Below are positions 56,107-64,000 of a stretch of 64,000 nucleotides of DNA, in pieces (the first letter of the stretch is position 1; every line of letters starts with the position of its first letter). The notes beneath the pieces are model-generated. The model did not search any database. It was not told the DNA's origin and saw nothing but the letters and a program-made list of their open reading frames with translations. Position numbers and translations under genes: made by a program. The stretch is from Legionella drozanskii LLAP-1 (GTDB taxonomy: Bacteria > Pseudomonadota > Gammaproteobacteria > Legionellales > Legionellaceae): assembly GCF_001467585.1 (NCBI RefSeq), contig NZ_LNXY01000003.1:248001-312000 (forward strand). Reading direction: 5' to 3'.

Positions 56107-58008
56107 TTATCCAGGCTGGCAGAGTGACTCCATTTCTTCGACAACATCTTCTAAATCATACACTTTTCTCAGCCCATCAGTCCGCCATAAATAAGGCGTC
56201 CTCTTTGAAGTTAAGAGAGTCGCCCCTATGATCAGTCCATAAATAACACCAAGCCCTAAAACTAGGCCCAGAAGAACATTACAAAGGACAATATTGCTTA
56301 GATCACGATGAGTGCTAAGAGAGGATTTATGAGTTTTAATTAAAACATCCGTATCGTACCTGAAATCATTATAGTCATTAAGGTCTTTTGAACTTTGTTT
56401 AAAGGCTTCTAATGCCTTATGAACTCCCTCATGTAACTCTTTTGCATGATTCTCAGCATCTTCATACTTCTCAATATATTCATTGAATTCTTTGTCAGTA
56501 TCAAAGTCTTCTCTTTTAGCCGATTGACGAAAGTTTCTATACTCAGTCTCTTTCTCTTTAAGCGTTTTTAAAACTTGTTCTATCTTTAGGATTTGATTAT
56601 TAATTTGCTTGGTTTTCTCAGGGACTGGTTCATAATCCTCAGTTTCATAGGAATCAACAGGAACGGACGAATTGGAAGAACGGTCGTCACCTGGCACTAA
56701 AGCAGCAGGCTCTGCACTAAGTCTTTGGTTACGCGCCTTGTCTCTTCTTTGGTAACGCAAACTAAAGCTTATCGGTTCTTGACTGTCTGCAGTAGTACCT
56801 AGAAGATCAGGCTGGTCTAAAGGCTCAAATGAGCCTAAAAGATCTGAGCCACCTAAAGTATGAGGCCGCGAAAAACCATTTTCTTCCCAAAATGCTGAAT
56901 CATAAACTCGCTCTTTCTCTTTCTCTTTCTCATTCCTTTTTCCTTTTTCCTTCTCATAGAAGGATCCGTCTTCAGAGAGTCTAAACGATGCTTGACGGCG
57001 GGTAGATGTCGATGTAGAAGCGCTGGGTACGGGAGGTGGAGGGACAATTACTATTTCGACACCTTGTTTAGCTCCCACTTCTCGAAGCATTTCCTCATGA
57101 GATAGCGCAACATAATCATTATTAACCGTTTTTCGCCAATGATTAACGACATGAGTACCACAATCATAAAAAGCGGTCTGCTTTCCGTTCGTATATTCTA
57201 ATTCCTTAAAATTATCGTCATACTTTGTTAATAATATACTGCAATTAATTCGGATAAAATTTTGACGAGCTATTCTGTCGTTAAAGGGCTGTGGATCAAA
57301 AAGAGTCCAAACGCCCTGCTCCCTAACCAGGCTAACCCAATGACCCTGATGTGCAATAGGTAAATAGATATCCTTCTCTTGGTTAATCAGCTCTCTAATT
57401 GATTTTTCAATGCCTTGCGTTAATTCTTTAACTAATTCGCCCATCCCTTCACTCAGGAGTCTAGCCGCTGCTCCTTCATCCTTCAAAAATGCACTAGATA
57501 AATCCGATTCTTCGGCGGAAAAATTAGGCAGCTCGAAAGGGTCGGATTTAAGTATATCAGGAGACATAAAACTATCATCGTTAAAAAGATAGAACATGTC
57601 ATTAAGGGCTAATAAAGTATCGCTGGTGACTTTGCCGGATCTTTCTTGTTGATCTCCCACAGAGAGAAAGGCGCTCGCATGGTTTTCACGGTCGTTTGGG
57701 GCGCGCTGAAGCTCCATTTTAAATTCAGCGTGCCATTTTTTTAAATGGGAAGTCCATATTGCAACTTCATTTTTATGGGCATTTTTTTGCGCTAATAAAA
57801 GACTTGAGATAATTATAATAAATCGACTTAATAAATCTCTGCCAATAAAAGTGGGCAGTGCGCATAAATTAAATAATTCAATATCGTGCTCTATACAACG
57901 CTCAATAATAAATTCACGCGAGCCTTTAAAAGTCTTGGATTCATCTAAATTATCTAACAAAGCATTTATGTTGTCATATTGTTCGGTTAGTGCTGTTTTA
58001 GAGACCAT
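56107..58008 (-). CDS. CE-clan cysteine-protease-like protein, candidate Dot/Icm effector
   Basis: About 633 residues from the ATG at 58008. The catalytic order of Ulp/YopJ-type proteases is visible: His223-Trp (GHWVSLV), Asp238 (WTLFDPQ), Gln277 and Cys283 (QTAFYDCGTHVVNHW). N-terminal helical region, then Pro/Ser linker (PPPPVPSASTSTSTRR), a Lys/Glu stretch, a coiled coil (about residues 465-560), one or two hydrophobic helices (LLGLVLGLGVIYGLIIGATL) and an acidic C-terminus (LEDVVEEMESL) like Dot/Icm E-blocks. It may remove ubiquitin-like proteins or acetylate host targets while anchored in a host membrane. Activity and translocation are inference. Confidence 0.72.
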   Translation of the reverse strand: MVSKTALTEQYDNINALLDNLDESKTFKGSREFIIERCIEHDIELFNLCALPTFIGRDLLSRFIIIISSLLLAQKNAHKNEVAIWTSHLKKWHAEFKMELQRAPNDRENHASAFLSVGDQQERSGKVTSDTLLALNDMFYLFNDDSFMSPDILKSDPFELPNFSAEESDLSSAFLKDEGAAARLLSEGMGELVKELTQGIEKSIRELINQEKDIYLPIAHQGHWVSLVREQGVWTLFDPQPFNDRIARQNFIRINCSILLTKYDDNFKELEYTNGKQTAFYDCGTHVVNHWRKTVNNDYVALSHEEMLREVGAKQGVEIVIVPPPPVPSASTSTSTRRQASFRLSEDGSFYEKEKGKRNEKEKEKERVYDSAFWEENGFSRPHTLGGSDLLGSFEPLDQPDLLGTTADSQEPISFSLRYQRRDKARNQRLSAEPAALVPGDDRSSNSSVPVDSYETEDYEPVPEKTKQINNQILKIEQVLKTLKEKETEYRNFRQSAKREDFDTDKEFNEYIEKYEDAENHAKELHEGVHKALEAFKQSSKDLNDYNDFRYDTDVLIKTHKSSLSTHRDLSNIVLCNVLLGLVLGLGVIYGLIIGATLLTSKRTPYLWRTDGLRKVYDLEDVVEEMESLCQPG

Positions 58009-58437
58009 AATAATTCTCACAGAAAAAGAAGTTTGACCGATACGAGGGAAAAACTGAAGTCCGACTTAGCTTATGATAACAATTTCCCGTTTAATTGACA
58101 AATATACTTACAAAATGCAAAAATAATTTATGCTTTATTTCTATTTATGACAATAATAAAGTCAAATTTAATAGAATAATTTTGATTTACTTCAGAAGCA
58201 TACTCTTTGAGTATTGACATATTTTTACAATGAACATACTATGGTTATTACGCCAATGATTTTTATTCTTTGTGAGAAAACAAAGATGCCTACTCGCGAA
58301 CATTTTATTATGTCACTTCTAAACAATCTTCTCCGCTGAGCGGAGTACTATCTGTCATCCACAATTTAATTCCCTAACTCTTTAAAAAAAACACAGTTTT
58401 AGAGTTAATTTTTAAAAAAAACAGAAAGTGATAACTT
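58009..58437. other. Divergent intergenic region with MFS-gene promoter
   Basis: 429 bases without a gene. A good promoter toward the MFS gene (TTGACA 58214-58219, 17 bases, TACTAT 58237-58242), a perfect 6-bp hairpin CTCCGC-TGA-GCGGAG (58331-58345), and a 27-codon open frame (58256-58339) without a ribosome-binding site. The leader before the MFS ATG would be about 190 bases. Confidence 0.4.
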
Positions 58438-59670: not shown

Positions 59671-59774
59671 AGCACCCAAGACAAATGCGAGGTTTATCAA
59701 GAGGTTCTTACTTGATGGGCTTCGCTCTATTTAAACTTCTAGCAAACACCCAAGCATTTCAAATTTTATACAAC

Positions 59775-59803
59775 TTGAAGATAATTAATCATTCATCTAT
59801 TCT
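59775..59803 (+). promoter_or_regulatory. Promoter of RiPP precursor gene 1
   Basis: TTGAAG (-35, 59775-59780), 17 bases, TATTCT (-10, 59798-59803). The same two boxes and spacing occur before precursor gene 2, so they are conserved through the duplication. Confidence 0.5.
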
Positions 59804-59840
59804 TAATTAAGATTTTCGTCTATTACAAATGGAGATTGAA

Positions 59841-60236
59841 ATGGATAAGAAAAATCGCATCATCGCAACCGCAGCAGCAGCCCTCTTCGCATCTGGTCTT
59901 TATGCCTCAAGTTCTAATTCCGGAAACGGAGGTTCTAACTCTCAAGTAACAAATAGTCCTGGTTCCGATTACGCTAAAAACTCTTGTAAGAGTCAGAATC
60001 AATGCAAAAGCACTAACCATTGCAAGAGTCACAATCAATGCAAAAGCACTAACCATTGCAAGAGTCACAATCAATGCAAAAGCGCCAACCATTGTAAGAG
60101 TCACAATCAATGCAAAAGCGCCAACCATTGTAAGAGTCACAATCAATGCAAAAGCTCTAACCATTGTAAGAGTCACAATAAATGTAAAAGCAGCAACCAT
60201 TGCAAAAGCGCTAGCGGCTGCCATTGCAAGAACTAA
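59841..60236 (+). CDS. CKS-repeat RiPP metallophore precursor 1
   Basis: 131 residues. Start ATG 59841 with GGAG ten bases before it (an in-frame ATG four codons earlier overlaps this site). Sec-type signal (MDKKNRIIATAAAALFASGLY, cut near YA-SSS), a short Ser/Asn/Gly spacer, then thirteen Cys-Lys-Ser units in strict six-residue spacing (CKSTNH CKSHNQ pattern) ending CHCKN; 15 Cys in all. With the DUF692 and DUF2063 genes downstream it is the substrate of a Cys-modifying maturase, like bufferin/HvfA precursors. Copper or other soft-metal binding in the periplasm is the likely role (inference). Confidence 0.78.
   Translation: MDKKNRIIATAAAALFASGLYASSSNSGNGGSNSQVTNSPGSDYAKNSCKSQNQCKSTNHCKSHNQCKSTNHCKSHNQCKSANHCKSHNQCKSANHCKSHNQCKSSNHCKSHNKCKSSNHCKSASGCHCKN
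59985..60213 (+). repeat. 36-base tandem repeats encoding CKS hexads in precursor 1
   Basis: About six copies of a 36-base unit encoding a CKSxNH-CKSHNQ dodecapeptide, with mostly third-position or Thr/Ala/Ser changes. Recent expansion by slippage or recombination. Confidence 0.8.
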
Positions 60237-60304
60237 TAGGATAAAGATACCTCAAATGGGGCATCTGGCTTATAGCACAATTTTCAGGTCAAATTTTGTA
60301 CAAC

Positions 60305-60333
60305 TTGAAGATGGTTAATCCTTAATCTATTCT
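60305..60333 (+). promoter_or_regulatory. Promoter of RiPP precursor gene 2
   Basis: TTGAAG (60305-60310), 17 bases, TATTCT (60328-60333), the duplicated copy of the box pair before precursor gene 1. Confidence 0.5.
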
Positions 60334-60370
60334 TAAATAAGATTTTTGCCTATTACAAATGGAGATTGAA

Positions 60371-60970
60371 ATGGATAAAAAAAGTCGCATCATCGCAACC
60401 GCAGCAGCGGCCCTATTTGCATCCGGTCTTTATGCCTCAAGCTCTAATTCCGGATATGGGGGCTCCAATGATAACTCTGGAGGAAAATCATCAGGTGGAT
60501 GGGGAACAAGCCCTTCAGGTGGTAGTTACGGTGGAACGCCTACCGGCGGAAATTCTGGAGGAAAGTCTAACTCCAACTCCAATAGTGGTTATGGAGGAAA
60601 CTCTAACTCCGATAGTGGTTATGGCGGAAAATCTAACCCCGATAGTGGTTACGGAGGAAACTCTAACTCCGACAGTGGTTACGGAGGTTCCGATTCTGGG
60701 GGCTCTAAAAACTCGTGCAAGAGTCACAGCAAATGCAAGAGCAATCATAGTTGTAAGAGCAATCATAGTTGCAAGAGCAATAATAGTTGTAAGAGCAATC
60801 ATAGTTGCAAGAGTAATCATAGCTGCAAGAGCAAGAGCAACTGCAAAAGTTATAACAATTGCAAGAGCAAGAGCAAAAACAACTGCAAAAGTTATAACAA
60901 CTGCAAGAGTAAGAGCAAAAACAATTGCAAAAGTTATAACAGCTGTAAAAGCTCCAACAGCTCATATTGA
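60371..60970 (+). CDS. CKS-repeat RiPP metallophore precursor 2
   Basis: 199 residues. Nearly identical signal peptide to precursor 1, then an 85-residue Gly/Ser/Asn linker with GYGG repeats (SGYGGNSNSD units), then thirteen CKS units (CKSNHS, CKSYNN) including two eight-residue CKSKSKNN units; 13 Cys. Start ATG 60371 with GGAG. Paralogue from a tandem duplication that included the promoter. It ends just before a strong hairpin. Same expected fate as precursor 1; the linker may extend the Cys region from an anchor or aid secretion. Confidence 0.78.
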   Translation: MDKKSRIIATAAAALFASGLYASSSNSGYGGSNDNSGGKSSGGWGTSPSGGSYGGTPTGGNSGGKSNSNSNSGYGGNSNSDSGYGGKSNPDSGYGGNSNSDSGYGGSDSGGSKNSCKSHSKCKSNHSCKSNHSCKSNNSCKSNHSCKSNHSCKSKSNCKSYNNCKSKSKNNCKSYNNCKSKSKNNCKSYNSCKSSNSSY

Positions 60971-60977
60971 TGTACTG

Positions 60978-61005
60978 CAGATGCCCCAAATGGGGCATCT
61001 GTTTT
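60978..61005 (+). terminator. Hairpin between precursors and maturase genes
   Basis: Perfect 10-bp stem CAGATGCCCC / GGGGCATCTG, loop AAAT, then TTTT. It lies 37 bases before the maturase ATG, so it probably lets only part of transcription through. A decayed version (AGATACCTC / GGGGCATCT) follows precursor gene 1 near 60246-60267. Confidence 0.75.
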
Positions 61006-61041
61006 ATGCTCCCACTTATCCTTTCTAGGAATCAACAATTG

Positions 61042-61917
61042 ATGAAAAACAATTATCAAATTAAAGAAAAAAAATCTTTAGGTATGGGATTAGGTCTACG
61101 GGCAGAGCATTATCAACATATTTTAGAGCACTCTCCAACAATCGATTGGTTTGAAATCCTTACAGAAAATTACCTGGTTGATGGAGGAAATCCACTTTAT
61201 TATCTAAACAAAATTCGTGAGAACTACCCACTTGTCATGCATGGCGTGTCTTTATCGATTGGCAGCACAGATCCGCTCAATGTTGATTATTTAAAACAGG
61301 TCAAACAATTAGCCGATCGTATTCAGCCGCAATGGATTTCTGATCATCTCTGTTGGACTGGGGTTCATCAACGGAATATGCATGACTTGTTACCATTAGC
61401 CTACACCGAAAAAGCAATTGAGCATGTTGTAGAGCGTGTGAAATTCGTACAAGATTTTTATCAACGTCAAATCCTTTTAGAAAATGTATCCAGTTATATT
61501 ACTTATAAAGCCTCGGAGATGACGGAATGGGAATTTCTTAGTGAAATCGCGAATCGTGCTGATTGTTTAATCTTATTAGATATAAATAATATTTATGTCA
61601 GTGCATTCAATCATGGCTTTGATCCACTTGTCTATATTGATTCTATACCTGTCAATCGCGTCCAACAATTTCATTTAGCCGGTCATTTAAATTGTGAAAA
61701 CTACATTATTGATACTCATGACCACCCCATTATCACTGAGGTCTGGGAACTCTATGCTAAGGCGGTCAAACGCTTCGGCAATATATCAACGATGATAGAG
61801 CGGGATGATCACATCCCCGCTTTCGAAGAATTATGGCAAGAATTAGATTATGCAAGAACGATTCAACAAAATTGTTTATCAACCCTGGAAGCGAGCTTAG
61901 AACATGAAACTCAATGA
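61042..61917 (+). CDS. DUF692 (MNIO) RiPP maturase, MbnB/HvfB/BufB-like
   Basis: 291 residues from the ATG at 61042 (AGGA at 61027-61030). TIM-barrel multinuclear non-heme iron oxygenase: GLGLRAEHY, MHGVSLSIGS, SDHLCW, LENVSSY, LLDINNIYVSAFNHGFDP, QFHLAGH, DTHDHPI, TMIERDDHIP carry the His/Asp/Asn/Glu iron ligands. Family enzymes convert Cys to oxazolone/thioamide or thiooxazole groups. It shares 14 bases with the DUF2063 gene. Predicted substrate: the two CKS proteins upstream. Confidence 0.9.
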   Translation: MKNNYQIKEKKSLGMGLGLRAEHYQHILEHSPTIDWFEILTENYLVDGGNPLYYLNKIRENYPLVMHGVSLSIGSTDPLNVDYLKQVKQLADRIQPQWISDHLCWTGVHQRNMHDLLPLAYTEKAIEHVVERVKFVQDFYQRQILLENVSSYITYKASEMTEWEFLSEIANRADCLILLDINNIYVSAFNHGFDPLVYIDSIPVNRVQQFHLAGHLNCENYIIDTHDHPIITEVWELYAKAVKRFGNISTMIERDDHIPAFEELWQELDYARTIQQNCLSTLEASLEHETQ

Positions 61918-62680
61918 ACTACATAGTCTATTACAAAAGTCGATGTTGACTTTGGACCCCATTATTAAGCCTTATCTCTGCCCACCGCCACGCGGATCAA
62001 TAGATGAGCGCGTAGCTATTTATGCTGAAGGATTTTACGGTCGACTTGAGGAAACACTCGCGAATGACTACTCAACCTTGGCTGAAATGTTAGGGGAATC
62101 AAAATTTAATACACTGTGTCGAAAATACATCGACGCTTACCCTTCTTACCACTATTCACTCAATTCATTCGGCCAACATCTCAGCCAATTTCTCTTGGAA
62201 ACAGTAGCTTATAGCAAAAAAACTTATTTAAGTGAAATTGCTGCCTTTGAATGGGCTGAATCCGACGCGATTATTAGCCGTAATGCCGAACTGCTTTCTG
62301 AATCCGATCTACGAGATTTACCTCCAAAAGCATGGCCTAAGCTTAAATTATACCTCCACCCTTCCTGCCAAATTCTTTGCATGCATTGGAACAGCTTGGC
62401 GCTAATTGAAGCTCCGCGACGAGGCCTATCAATACCTCACCCTAGAAAACTTAAGAGCCCGCAATTTGTACTCGTTTGGCGCCGTCAACTTGAAGTGCGC
62501 TATTGTAAACTGGATCACCTAGAGCAAAATTTATTGCAAGCAATCAAGTCTCAAGCGACTTTTATGGAAATTTGTGAGCAACTCAGCCATAAAATGCCCG
62601 AAGCTGAGGTAGCAACATATATAGTAAAAAAATTGCACTCATGGCTAAATGAACAGATTTTTGTGCAAAATCAGCATTAA
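61904..62680 (+). CDS. DUF2063 RiPP partner protein, MbnC/HvfC/BufC-like
   Basis: 258 residues. N-terminal DUF2063 helical domain (RVAIYAEGFYGRLEETLAND; YPSYHYSLNSFGQHLSQFL) and a C-terminal domain that by family helps recognise the precursor and supports the DUF692 enzyme. Overlap with the maturase gene implies a complex. Last gene of the cluster; no DoxX-type (BufD/HvfD) gene follows. Confidence 0.88.
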   Translation: MKLNELHSLLQKSMLTLDPIIKPYLCPPPRGSIDERVAIYAEGFYGRLEETLANDYSTLAEMLGESKFNTLCRKYIDAYPSYHYSLNSFGQHLSQFLLETVAYSKKTYLSEIAAFEWAESDAIISRNAELLSESDLRDLPPKAWPKLKLYLHPSCQILCMHWNSLALIEAPRRGLSIPHPRKLKSPQFVLVWRRQLEVRYCKLDHLEQNLLQAIKSQATFMEICEQLSHKMPEAEVATYIVKKLHSWLNEQIFVQNQH

Positions 62681-62735: not shown

Positions 62736-63599
62736 TTAAATTGACAGACAATCTCTGATTAACGTTTCAATCCCTTCATGCCCCAATGCTTTAAGTAAAT
62801 CTTCAGTTTGCTGTTGCAATTCCTGTTCTGCTGCATTGGGTTTTTTTATCGCAGTTACTCGTTCTTGCACTGAAGAAATAGCTGATTTCAAAGTGCTTTG
62901 AACTACGGGATTATTCATCACTCCCAAAGAAAAATGATCTTGTAGGGGGTGCTCTTCCAATACTTTTAGAACCTTAGATATCTCTTCAGCATCAAATTTT
63001 TGTCTTTTAACTAAAGTTTCAACTGCTAGCCCCATTATTGTAGTAGAAGCAGAATAGCAATTAGAGTTAACCATATTACAAAATTGTGGTTTATTAATCA
63101 GTTTATCCGTTTTATTGAGAAACTCTTCAATTTCTTCCTTAGTAAATAATGCGCCGGTAGGGTGAGCTGTGAAGGGGTAGTTTTTATTAAGATATTTACC
63201 TTCGTTATCCATTTCAGTACGGAAATTAATTCCCTCACGTAGCCAATTGGAAAAATCCCAGGGACTTTGGCGACCATAGACAAAGAAGGTTTCAGTCTCT
63301 GGATCTTTAAATGCAATCGCTGAATGGCTAATAGGAAGCTTTGGAATGGGAAGGCCTGATTTAGTAGCAAACATTAACTCATAATGTTCATTATCTTGCA
63401 TCTCATCTAAGGATTTCATTTTTTCTGGCGGTATTTCTACTGGGTCTGAGCTTAAGGTCTTAGATTCTATACTCGTTGGGTTGGTTGCAAAATATAAAGA
63501 ACGACTAAAAAAAGAGGGTCCAAGTTTAGTAGATAATTTCATCGATTGATTCCCAACTATCCCGACTGCCCTGCGTCCAAAAAATCTTTCTAATGGCAC
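62736..63599 (-). CDS. Hypothetical protein, possible permuted NlpC/P60-like peptidase or effector
   Basis: About 287 residues from the GTG at 63599, which has a strong AAGGAG...AGGAAA site; an ATG at 63542 with GGGA is the alternative. The order His (PISHSAIAF) then Cys (NMVNSNCYSASTTIMG) resembles permuted NlpC/P60 or LRAT-like papain folds. The C-terminus is Gln/Glu-rich (EQELQQQTEDLLKALG). No signal peptide. Effector status is a guess. Convergent with the RiPP operon. Confidence 0.55.
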   Translation of the reverse strand: MPLERFFGRRAVGIVGNQSMKLSTKLGPSFFSRSLYFATNPTSIESKTLSSDPVEIPPEKMKSLDEMQDNEHYELMFATKSGLPIPKLPISHSAIAFKDPETETFFVYGRQSPWDFSNWLREGINFRTEMDNEGKYLNKNYPFTAHPTGALFTKEEIEEFLNKTDKLINKPQFCNMVNSNCYSASTTIMGLAVETLVKRQKFDAEEISKVLKVLEEHPLQDHFSLGVMNNPVVQSTLKSAISSVQERVTAIKKPNAAEQELQQQTEDLLKALGHEGIETLIRDCLSI

Positions 63600-64000
63600 T
63601 TTCCTGCTCCTTAATATAGGTTGTTGCTTGCAGATTCCATATTTCACTGCGTCATAACAACGCCATTTATTAGAATATGGTCTTTTTAAATTAAGCTAAA
63701 GCGGTTTCAAACCTCTTCTTAGCAATTAATAAACTGACCTTAGTGTTCGTTATTTTTACATAAAAGCCGAATTTCATCAACCTCTTTCAGAATACAGAGG
63801 TTGTTAATAGAGAATAGCAGGCGTTAAGCCAAAAAAAAGAGGTTTGTTCCCTCTCTGTTTAGTAATCACTCTAATTCTCGCTTACTAACTGTATTAAATT
63901 AATCCTTTTTCACATGGCCCTTCTTCGTTATTGCATATTCCATTACACAGTTTTTTTCAAGTTTGATGCGCATAATAATGCCTTAATGTTTAAGTTATAT
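63600..64000. other. AT-rich region at the window edge
   Basis: No gene seen. A weak inverted repeat CAACCTCT / AGAGGTTG (63778-63803) without a T-tract. The window may cut a gene beyond 64000. Confidence 0.3.

What the first reader, a model, noticed from the sequence alone, without database searches (positions are those of the whole stretch)
59741..62680. MNIO-type RiPP operon with Cys-Lys-Ser repeat precursors
Seen: two exported proteins with thirteen CKS units each, immediately upstream of overlapping DUF692 and DUF2063 genes. Known: DUF692/DUF2063 pairs modify Cys in methanobactin, bufferin (DUF2282 type) and HvfA (EGKCG repeat) precursors. Inferred: each CKS Cys is a modification site, giving a protein with up to 13-15 modified Cys for copper or other soft-metal sequestration, useful inside metal-stressed phagosomes. 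The strict hexad CKSxNH/CKSHNQ core is not the EGKCG or DUF2282 core I know, so this may be an undescribed subclass.
Basis: partly seen in the sequence, partly recalled or inferred. Interest (0 to 1): 0.9.

Follow-up and report, generated by a model that had tools for sequence, protein, structure and literature searches.

The report
Repeat-expanded Buf2-type copper-bufferin operon
A Legionella-family bacterium carries a small operon whose two exported proteins hold thirteen copies each of a Cys-Lys-Ser unit, next to the enzymes expected to modify those cysteines; it is best read as a repeat-expanded version of a known family of copper-binding peptides (bufferins), not as a new class.

Summary
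In detail: two exported precursors with 13 CKS units each, an MNIO (DUF692) gene and an overlapping DUF2063 gene. It does not lie outside the known classes. The maturase passes the BufB model (386.5 bits, cut-off 310) and has Asp at the site reported for "Cys-Lys" (Buf2) maturases. The same genome holds an ordinary six-Cys Buf2 operon (CKGxxx hexads). In 143 family genomes, 20 intact maturases form one clade beside the canonical Buf2 ones. At 19 of those 20 loci a precursor was seen (21 in all): C-x5-C arrays of 4-24 Cys, CKS type at 7 loci and CKG type at 12. In 139 CKS hexads Lys never changes although its codon does, while positions 4 and 6 vary freely. The CKS array is therefore best read as a tandem expansion of the Buf2 hexad with a Gly-to-Ser switch. 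The window precursors miss the BufA2 cut-off (32.7 and 13.3 bits against 60) and the published 6/12-Cys pattern: new variant of a known kind. Inferred mechanism: cysteines along the array become 5-thiooxazoles, and the exported product sequesters Cu(I). CKS arrays also stand alone in three genomes where only a canonical Buf2 maturase was found.

The parts
59841..60236 (+). Precursor 1: 131 aa, signal-peptide-like leader, 15 Cys, 13 CKS
   Evidence: BufA2 model NF050166 32.7 bits, below its cut-off of 60
59985..60233 (+). Cys array of precursor 1, 36-nt period (CKSHNQ-CKSxNH pairs)
60371..60970 (+). Precursor 2: 199 aa, same leader, Gly/Ser/Asn-rich linker, 13 Cys, 13 CKS
   Evidence: BufA2 13.3 bits, E 0.07
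60716..60952 (+). Cys array of precursor 2, mostly 18-nt period with two 24-nt steps
59759..59938 (+). Upstream region plus leader, copy 1 of a 180-nt duplication
   Evidence: 89% identical to 60289-60468
60289..60468 (+). Upstream region plus leader, copy 2 of the duplication
59775..59803 (+). Promoter-like stretch TTGAAG-17 nt-TATTCT before precursor 1 (a second at 60305-60333 before precursor 2)
   Evidence: read by eye in a stretch conserved in the 12-row upstream alignment; only 8 of 12 consensus matches, so not listed by the promoter scan
60977..61002 (+). Terminator-like hairpin between precursor 2 and the MNIO gene
   Evidence: 11 pairs; 5 terminator-like sites found in the region, 2.6 +- 1.6 in shuffles; an 86% copy at 60245-60273 after precursor 1 was not listed as a terminator
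61042..61917 (+). MNIO maturase, BufB type
   Evidence: NF050167 386.5 bits > 310; PF05114 377.5 > 25; 3BWW E 7e-51
61904..62680 (+). DUF2063 partner protein (PME type 1, carries the recognition domain)
   Evidence: PF09836 55.7 > 27.2 and PF22106 NGO1945_C 30.4 > 27; NF050145 HvfC 76.6, below 142

Best explanation
The operon makes a repeat-expanded Buf2-type ('Cys-Lys' captophorin) bufferin. Two paralogous precursors with a Sec-type leader present a track of C-K-S-x-N-x hexads. The DUF2063 protein is expected to hold the leader, and the MNIO to oxidise cysteines one after another along the track to 5-thiooxazoles, with Asp256 pairing with the Lys that follows each Cys. The product is exported and sequesters Cu(I) (or a similar soft metal) in the periplasm. 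The array arose by tandem duplication of the Buf2 CKGxxx hexad, with Gly replaced by Ser, and its length differs between species. Shown here: genes, family of the maturase, orthologues, array variation, constraint on Lys. Inferred from characterised relatives: modification chemistry, export, copper.
For: Maturase passes BufB. D256 after the catalytic-base Asp in 20 of 20 array-clade and 15 of 16 six-Cys-clade maturases, but K, K and A in three other Legionella-family MNIOs and Phe in 3BWW; PMC13097082 section 14 reports Asp at this site for Cys-Lys maturases (site equivalence is my inference). Canonical Buf2 operon in the same genome, BufA2 90.7 bits. Array-clade maturases group together (95/93; 99/94), next to the canonical ones; 21 precursors at 19 of the 20 loci are hexad arrays (240 of 270 Cys-Cys gaps = 6; 4-24 Cys). 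CKG arrays link the two: G101 52.9 and G078 49.7 bits on a model of 15 canonical precursors, top of 119 decoys 23.1. In 139 CKS hexads, pair comparisons within arrays at the Lys position: 399 synonymous, 0 non-synonymous; position 4: 133 and 630; position 6: 307 and 509. No other array precursor found in the genome. Residues matching HvfB's essential N175/D242/H244 appear conserved (DINN, DTH; mapping inferred).
Against: Neither window precursor passes the BufA2 cut-off. On the canonical-precursor model P0001 (16.3) and P0002 (-2.9) do not beat the decoys; only the leader part does, narrowly (6.9 and 5.3 against a top decoy of 3.3; 17 of 21 arrays exceed it), and on the core part only 4 of 21 arrays exceed the top decoy. 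So the CKS cores are tied to Buf2 by maturase, leader and intermediate orthologues, not by direct core similarity. The Cys count is outside the published 6/12. DUF2063 is below the HvfC cut-off. In CKG arrays the first units often lack the Lys (CNG, CSG, CGG), so Lys is not required in every unit there. The orthologue G091 has only 4 Cys. CKS arrays without an array-clade maturase exist. No DoxX gene beside it (one borderline hit, far away). Cys constancy in the hexad count is partly by construction (hexads were chosen as C-x5-C).
Confidence: 0.74

Rival explanations
1. Metallothionein-like proteins: the arrays work mostly as unmodified thiols (or with only a few modified Cys), and copy number simply adds thiols.
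For: Lys is dispensable in the first units of CKG arrays. Arrays persist away from any adjacent maturase. Modification cannot be seen from sequence.
Against: Operon with BufB and DUF2063 at all 20 array-clade loci or nearly so (DUF2063 checked in the window and six further loci). Lys after Cys invariant in 139 CKS hexads. A bare thiol chain in the oxidising periplasm would form disulphides (inference).
Confidence: 0.13
2. Same chemistry, but the target is not copper homeostasis: another soft metal (gold, mercury, zinc), oxidative stress, or an envelope or extracellular role of the Gly/Ser/Asn-rich, Lys-rich protein.
For: The L. [quoted passage not shown] Some bufferin domains are fused to MerC (PMC12452194 section 14). 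No copper regulator or copper gene was seen beside this operon.
Against: Characterised members bind Cu (PMC13097082 section 11).
Confidence: 0.2
3. A member of the EGKCG/HvfA or DUF2282 (Buf1) class.
For: HvfB and ApyH models also hit the maturase, as relatives.
Against: No EGKCG motif, no DUF2282 hit, HvfB model 275.1 below its cut-off of 360, Asp and not Phe at the specificity site.
Confidence: 0.02
4. A decaying locus with junk repeats.
For: One family genome (G081) has a broken array-clade maturase.
Against: Open frames, and Lys codons that differ only synonymously between repeats; maintained in 19 further maturase loci.
Confidence: 0.02

Closest known systems
Buf2 bufferins (Buf_6/12Cys; NCBIfam BufA2 NF050166; 'Cys-Lys' group of captophorins)
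   Same: Gene order precursor-MNIO-DUF2063; Sec-type leader; CK-x4 hexads (CKGxNx in Legionella canonical precursors); BufB-model maturase with Asp at the specificity site; tandem precursor genes are also reported for bufferins (PMC12452194 section 14)
   Different: 13-15 Cys instead of 6 or 12; Ser instead of Gly after CK; no C-terminal sixth-Cys region (CEKAGGT); below the BufA2 cut-off; two paralogous precursors; no DoxX nearby
L. pneumophila GIG operon lpg2105-2108 (PMC5413113)
   Same: MNIO plus DUF2063 plus small exported precursor in a Legionella; transcription responds to copper and gold
   Different: DUF2282 (Buf1) precursor, DoxX present, on ICE-beta-ox
EGKCG oxazolin / fontiphorin / gonophorin (HvfABC, FonABC, NgoABC)
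   Same: Long Cys-repeat precursors modified many times by an MNIO-PME1 pair; 5-thiooxazole
   Different: Lys before Cys (KCG) in 5-mers, against Cys-Lys in 6-mers here; Phe against Asp at the maturase site. FonBC did not process substrates with a charged residue after Cys (PMC13097082 section 13)
Opitutales (Verrucomicrobiota) CKGKDG arrays, L131 and L142
   Same: Hexad CK arrays of 9-11 Cys directly before an MNIO gene
   Different: Far-off maturase clade, Gly not Ser; looks like an independent expansion

Membership tests
Buf2 / BufA2 bufferin | Precursor over the NCBIfam BufA2 cut-off (60 bits) | tested here: not met
   P0001 32.7, P0002 13.3; nine further array precursors 25.0-52.8; so 0 of the 11 (of 21) arrays whose score I saw. 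Own canonical precursor 90.7
Buf2 / BufA2 bufferin | 6 (or 12) conserved Cys | tested here: not met
   15 and 13 Cys; 4-24 in the orthologues
Buf2 / BufA2 bufferin | Sec signal peptide / leader | tested here: inconclusive
   MDKK-hydrophobic-SGLYA leader by eye; leader model 6.9 and 5.3 bits against top decoy 3.3; no signal-peptide predictor available
Buf2 / BufA2 bufferin | Gene order precursor - MNIO - DUF2063 | tested here: met
Buf2 / BufA2 bufferin | Maturase over the BufB model cut-off | tested here: met
   386.5 > 310
Captophorin (MNIO-PME1), Cys-Lys group | Precursor with multiple Cys-Lys motifs | tested here: met
   14 and 13 CK
Captophorin (MNIO-PME1), Cys-Lys group | Asp at the FonB-Phe250 site of the maturase | tested here: met
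   D256; 20 of 20 array-clade rows; site equivalence inferred from 3BWW and PMC13097082 section 14
Captophorin (MNIO-PME1), Cys-Lys group | PME1 partner (DUF2063 plus recognition domain) | tested here: met
   Pfam DUF2063 and NGO1945_C over cut-off; NCBIfam HvfC 76.6 below 142
Captophorin (MNIO-PME1), Cys-Lys group | 5-thiooxazole installed at Cys | not testable with these tools
   needs mass spectrometry / UV
Captophorin (MNIO-PME1), Cys-Lys group | Cu binding | not testable with these tools
   needs metal-binding assay
EGKCG/HvfA oxazolin | EGKCG repeats and HvfB-model maturase | tested here: not met
   no EGKCG in P0001/P0002; HvfB 275.1 below 360
DUF2282 (Buf1) bufferin | Pfam DUF2282 in the precursor | tested here: not met
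   no hit; the genome's orphan Buf1 gives 77.5 bits
Methanobactin | MbnB-model enzyme | tested here: not met
   64 bits, cut-off 325

The most novel reading that the evidence does not exclude
The hexad array is an evolvable dial for metal capacity: one MNIO complex works along tracks of 4 to 24 Cys-Lys units, array length changes by recombination between repeats and sets how many metal ions one polypeptide buffers, and the same expansion arose separately in Legionellaceae (CKS/CKG) and Opitutales (CKGKDG). Canonical six-Cys maturases could serve stand-alone CKS arrays in trans (G012, G017, G018), so that array length and maturase evolve separately.
Probability: 0.35. Interest if true: 0.62.

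Novelty: new variant of a known kind. Interest (0 to 1): 0.42.

Why it matters
Published Buf2 precursors are described with 6 or 12 Cys, and iterative processing of long precursors is discussed for the EGKCG family as an open question (PMC12452194, Discussion passage). A graded natural series (4, 10-15, 18-24 Cys) with closely related maturases offers a way to ask whether an MNIO complex works along a repeated track and whether repeat number sets metal capacity. It also shows that a curated model (BufA2) misses array-type precursors.

Tried and rejected
EGKCG/HvfA, DUF2282, methanobactin and ApyH/ChrH membership: rejected. Direct similarity of the CKS cores to Buf2: tested with 119 CK-rich decoy frames and not shown for the window precursors; the link goes through maturase, leader and CKG orthologues. 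One or two origins of CKS: unresolved. The count of changes is 2. The AU test rejects one CKS group if G015, whose precursor is cut off by a contig end, is left out (p 0.022), and does not if G015 is included (p 0.295). Maturase residues that follow Ser against Gly: three near-fixed positions (58, 188, 189), confounded with kinship. Phage origin: 0 of the 119 viral stretches that match the hexad pattern hold an MNIO frame; the viral scan was of the pattern only. The promoter scan shows no enrichment (4 found, 8.4 expected). Not run: structure prediction of the maturase with a CKS segment (no complex prediction offered) and any fold job.

Mistakes mended on the way: an MNIO text filter was too strict and found none, and that missed 10 loci; others (by place; by profile) replace them. 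The residue numbering was wrong and is replaced.

Not in print: searches listed no paper describing CKS hexad arrays.
Full report
Observation. Precursor 1 (59841-60236) has 15 Cys and 13 CKS, precursor 2 (60371-60970) 13 Cys and 13 CKS. The MNIO gene (61042-61917) overlaps the DUF2063 gene (61904-62680) by 14 nt. Residue shuffles never gave more than 5 CKS. The two precursor genes share a 180-nt duplication of upstream region plus leader (89%), so they are paralogues. Both are followed by related hairpin-like stretches (86% alike), of which only the second, 60977-61002, was listed as terminator-like. It would let precursors be made in excess over the maturase (inference).

What the enzymes are. 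The MNIO passes NCBIfam BufB (386.5 bits, cut-off 310). It falls below the cut-offs of HvfB (275.1 of 360), ApyH, MbnB and ChrH. The nearest solved structure by sequence is 3BWW (E 7e-51). The DUF2063 protein passes Pfam DUF2063 and NGO1945_C but not NCBIfam HvfC (76.6 of 142), and phmmer finds no solved relative at E 0.001. After the Asp taken as catalytic base (D255) comes D256. In 3BWW, a close relative of the EGKCG-type HvfB, that residue is Phe. PMC13097082 (sections 7 and 11-15 and passages read) reports Phe there for Lys-Cys and Asp for Cys-Lys maturases, with a modelled contact to the substrate Lys. D256 is Asp in 20 of 20 array-clade and 15 of 16 six-Cys-clade rows (the other is Gly), and in five of eight further rows; those that differ are K, K and A.

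Relatives. The window's genome has three MNIO genes. One sits behind a canonical six-Cys Buf2 precursor, CKGVNACKGQGSCKTATNSCKGQNSCKGQG...C, at 90.7 bits on BufA2. Of 143 family genomes, 78 have a match to P0003 at E <= 1e-60. Twenty intact maturases of 74-100% identity, plus a broken one in G081, stand apart from the rest (67% or less). On trees they form one clade (95/93 among 44 rows; 99/94 among 48 rows) beside the canonical clade. Of the 24 other loci examined, 16 have a CKG precursor within the flank held and 8 do not.

The arrays. At 19 of the 20 array-clade loci I found 21 precursors; at the other (G015) the contig ends there. They hold 4 to 24 Cys, and 240 of 270 Cys-Cys gaps are exactly 6. 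CKS arrays: G000 (two), G014 (two), G011, G016, G125, G129, G130. The other 12 are CKG arrays, one of them (G091) down to 4 Cys. Over 139 CKS hexads the Lys is invariant: within-array pair comparisons give 399 synonymous and 0 non-synonymous differences. Ser is replaced in 8 of 139. Positions 4 and 6 differ non-synonymously in 630 and 509 comparisons. Cys itself is fixed partly by how hexads were chosen, pairs within an array are not independent, and in CKG arrays the first units often lack Lys. So the Cys-Lys pair is what selection holds in the CKS arrays, which is what a Cys-Lys maturase would need.

Tie to Buf2, for and against. BufA2 matches 21 of 24 rows of A1 at E <= 0.01 (three of the 24 are canonical). 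None of the 11 arrays whose score I saw (of 21) passes the cut-off of 60 (13.3 to 52.8). A model of 15 canonical Legionella-family precursors was set against 119 CK-rich frames without an MNIO nearby: 10 of 21 arrays beat the best such frame (23.1 bits), best CKG arrays 52.9 and 49.7. The window's own do not (16.3 and -2.9). With the leader part alone 17 of 21 arrays beat the best decoy (3.3), the window's among them (6.9, 5.3); with the core alone 4 of 21 do. Hence: orthology through maturase, leader and CKG intermediates, not direct core similarity.

Other taxa. An MNIO frame lies in 15 of 236, all 15 in the genome set: five Legionella or Tatlockia, seven Opitutae/Verrucomicrobia, one each of Vicinamibacteria, Planctomycetota and an unclassified gammaproteobacterium. 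L131 and L142 (Opitutales) have 9 and 11 Cys in CKGKDG-type arrays, and their maturases lie far from the Legionella clade: a probable second expansion. CKS as the main unit beside an MNIO appeared only in the Legionella family, in this capped scan.

Uncoupled arrays. The precursor alignment A1 finds matches in 39 of 143 family genomes at E <= 1e-10. Five precursors in four genomes stand without an adjacent array-clade maturase: G012, G017 (two), G018, G015. In G012, G017 and G018 the one maturase found at E <= 1e-60 is of the canonical clade. In G017 its operon has no precursor in front, and the two CKS arrays lie about 3.3 kb downstream on the same strand. So canonical maturases may work on CKS arrays in trans, or some arrays may stay unmodified. 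PMC12452194 (abstract, sections 13, 14, 17, 19 and passages read) also reports stand-alone precursors and makes the same reservation.

Place. The operon sits between the same neighbours in G014 and G011 (upstream MFS gene 94% and 87%) but not in the four other loci compared. In G014 one of the two precursors lies after the DUF2063 gene instead.

Mechanism. From characterised members (PMC13097082; PMC13419390, passages): a mixed-valent iron cofactor, a partner protein, a signal peptide that also serves as leader, 5-thiooxazole, Cu binding. L. pneumophila's DUF2282-type GIG operon responds to copper and gold (PMC5413113, passages). For this operon each of these steps is inference. The number of modified Cys (up to 28 over both precursors) is not known.

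Verdict. Real, correctly seen, and a new variant of the Buf2 / Cys-Lys captophorin kind, not a new class.

Noticed in passing
G012:C1:748996, G017:C24:47843 and 48554, G018:C136:1284, G015:C256:5922 (L309, L317, L315, L320): Stand-alone CKS-type array precursors without an adjacent array-clade maturase. The longer one in G017 and that in G018 end in CKWRWTCKNI; G015's has CKQKHSCNYNS units; G012's lies near a transposase-like frame.
   Followed up: partly
L291:1402-1689 (G000:C3:226581), outside the window: Orphan Buf1 (DUF2282) precursor with no MNIO in the 3.2-kb stretch, beside a cyclase-like gene and two YceI-like genes (names recalled); DUF2282 77.5 bits.
   Followed up: partly
L003 (G000:C3:354842): Third MNIO of the genome, with Ala after the ERD motif, no Cys-rich precursor seen, next to a dioxygenase-like gene (name recalled).
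   Followed up: no
L073, L082, L119, L121, L137, L145 (Legionella species): Small exported-looking proteins made of CKGC triplets (GCKGCKGC...), with no MNIO frame in the stretches held.
   Followed up: no
L131, L142 (Opitutales): CKGKDG hexad arrays (9 and 11 Cys) before an MNIO gene: probable independent expansion.
   Followed up: partly
window 56107-58020 (-) and 62736-63647 (-): Flanking long frames without a Pfam hit, in the same order in G014 but only 44% and 74% identical there, against 94% for the MFS gene between: fast-evolving, possibly secreted proteins (inference).
   Followed up: no
G081:C4:121534-122375: Array-clade maturase broken by a stop and split in two frames; an array precursor match lies just upstream. 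Left as it is.
   Followed up: no
window P0003 positions 15, 47, 80, 110, 111, 139, 153, 210, 228, 261: Ten near-fixed differences between array-clade (20) and six-Cys-clade (16) maturases, two of them next to conserved His residues (F210, H228); may reflect the longer substrate or only descent.
   Followed up: no
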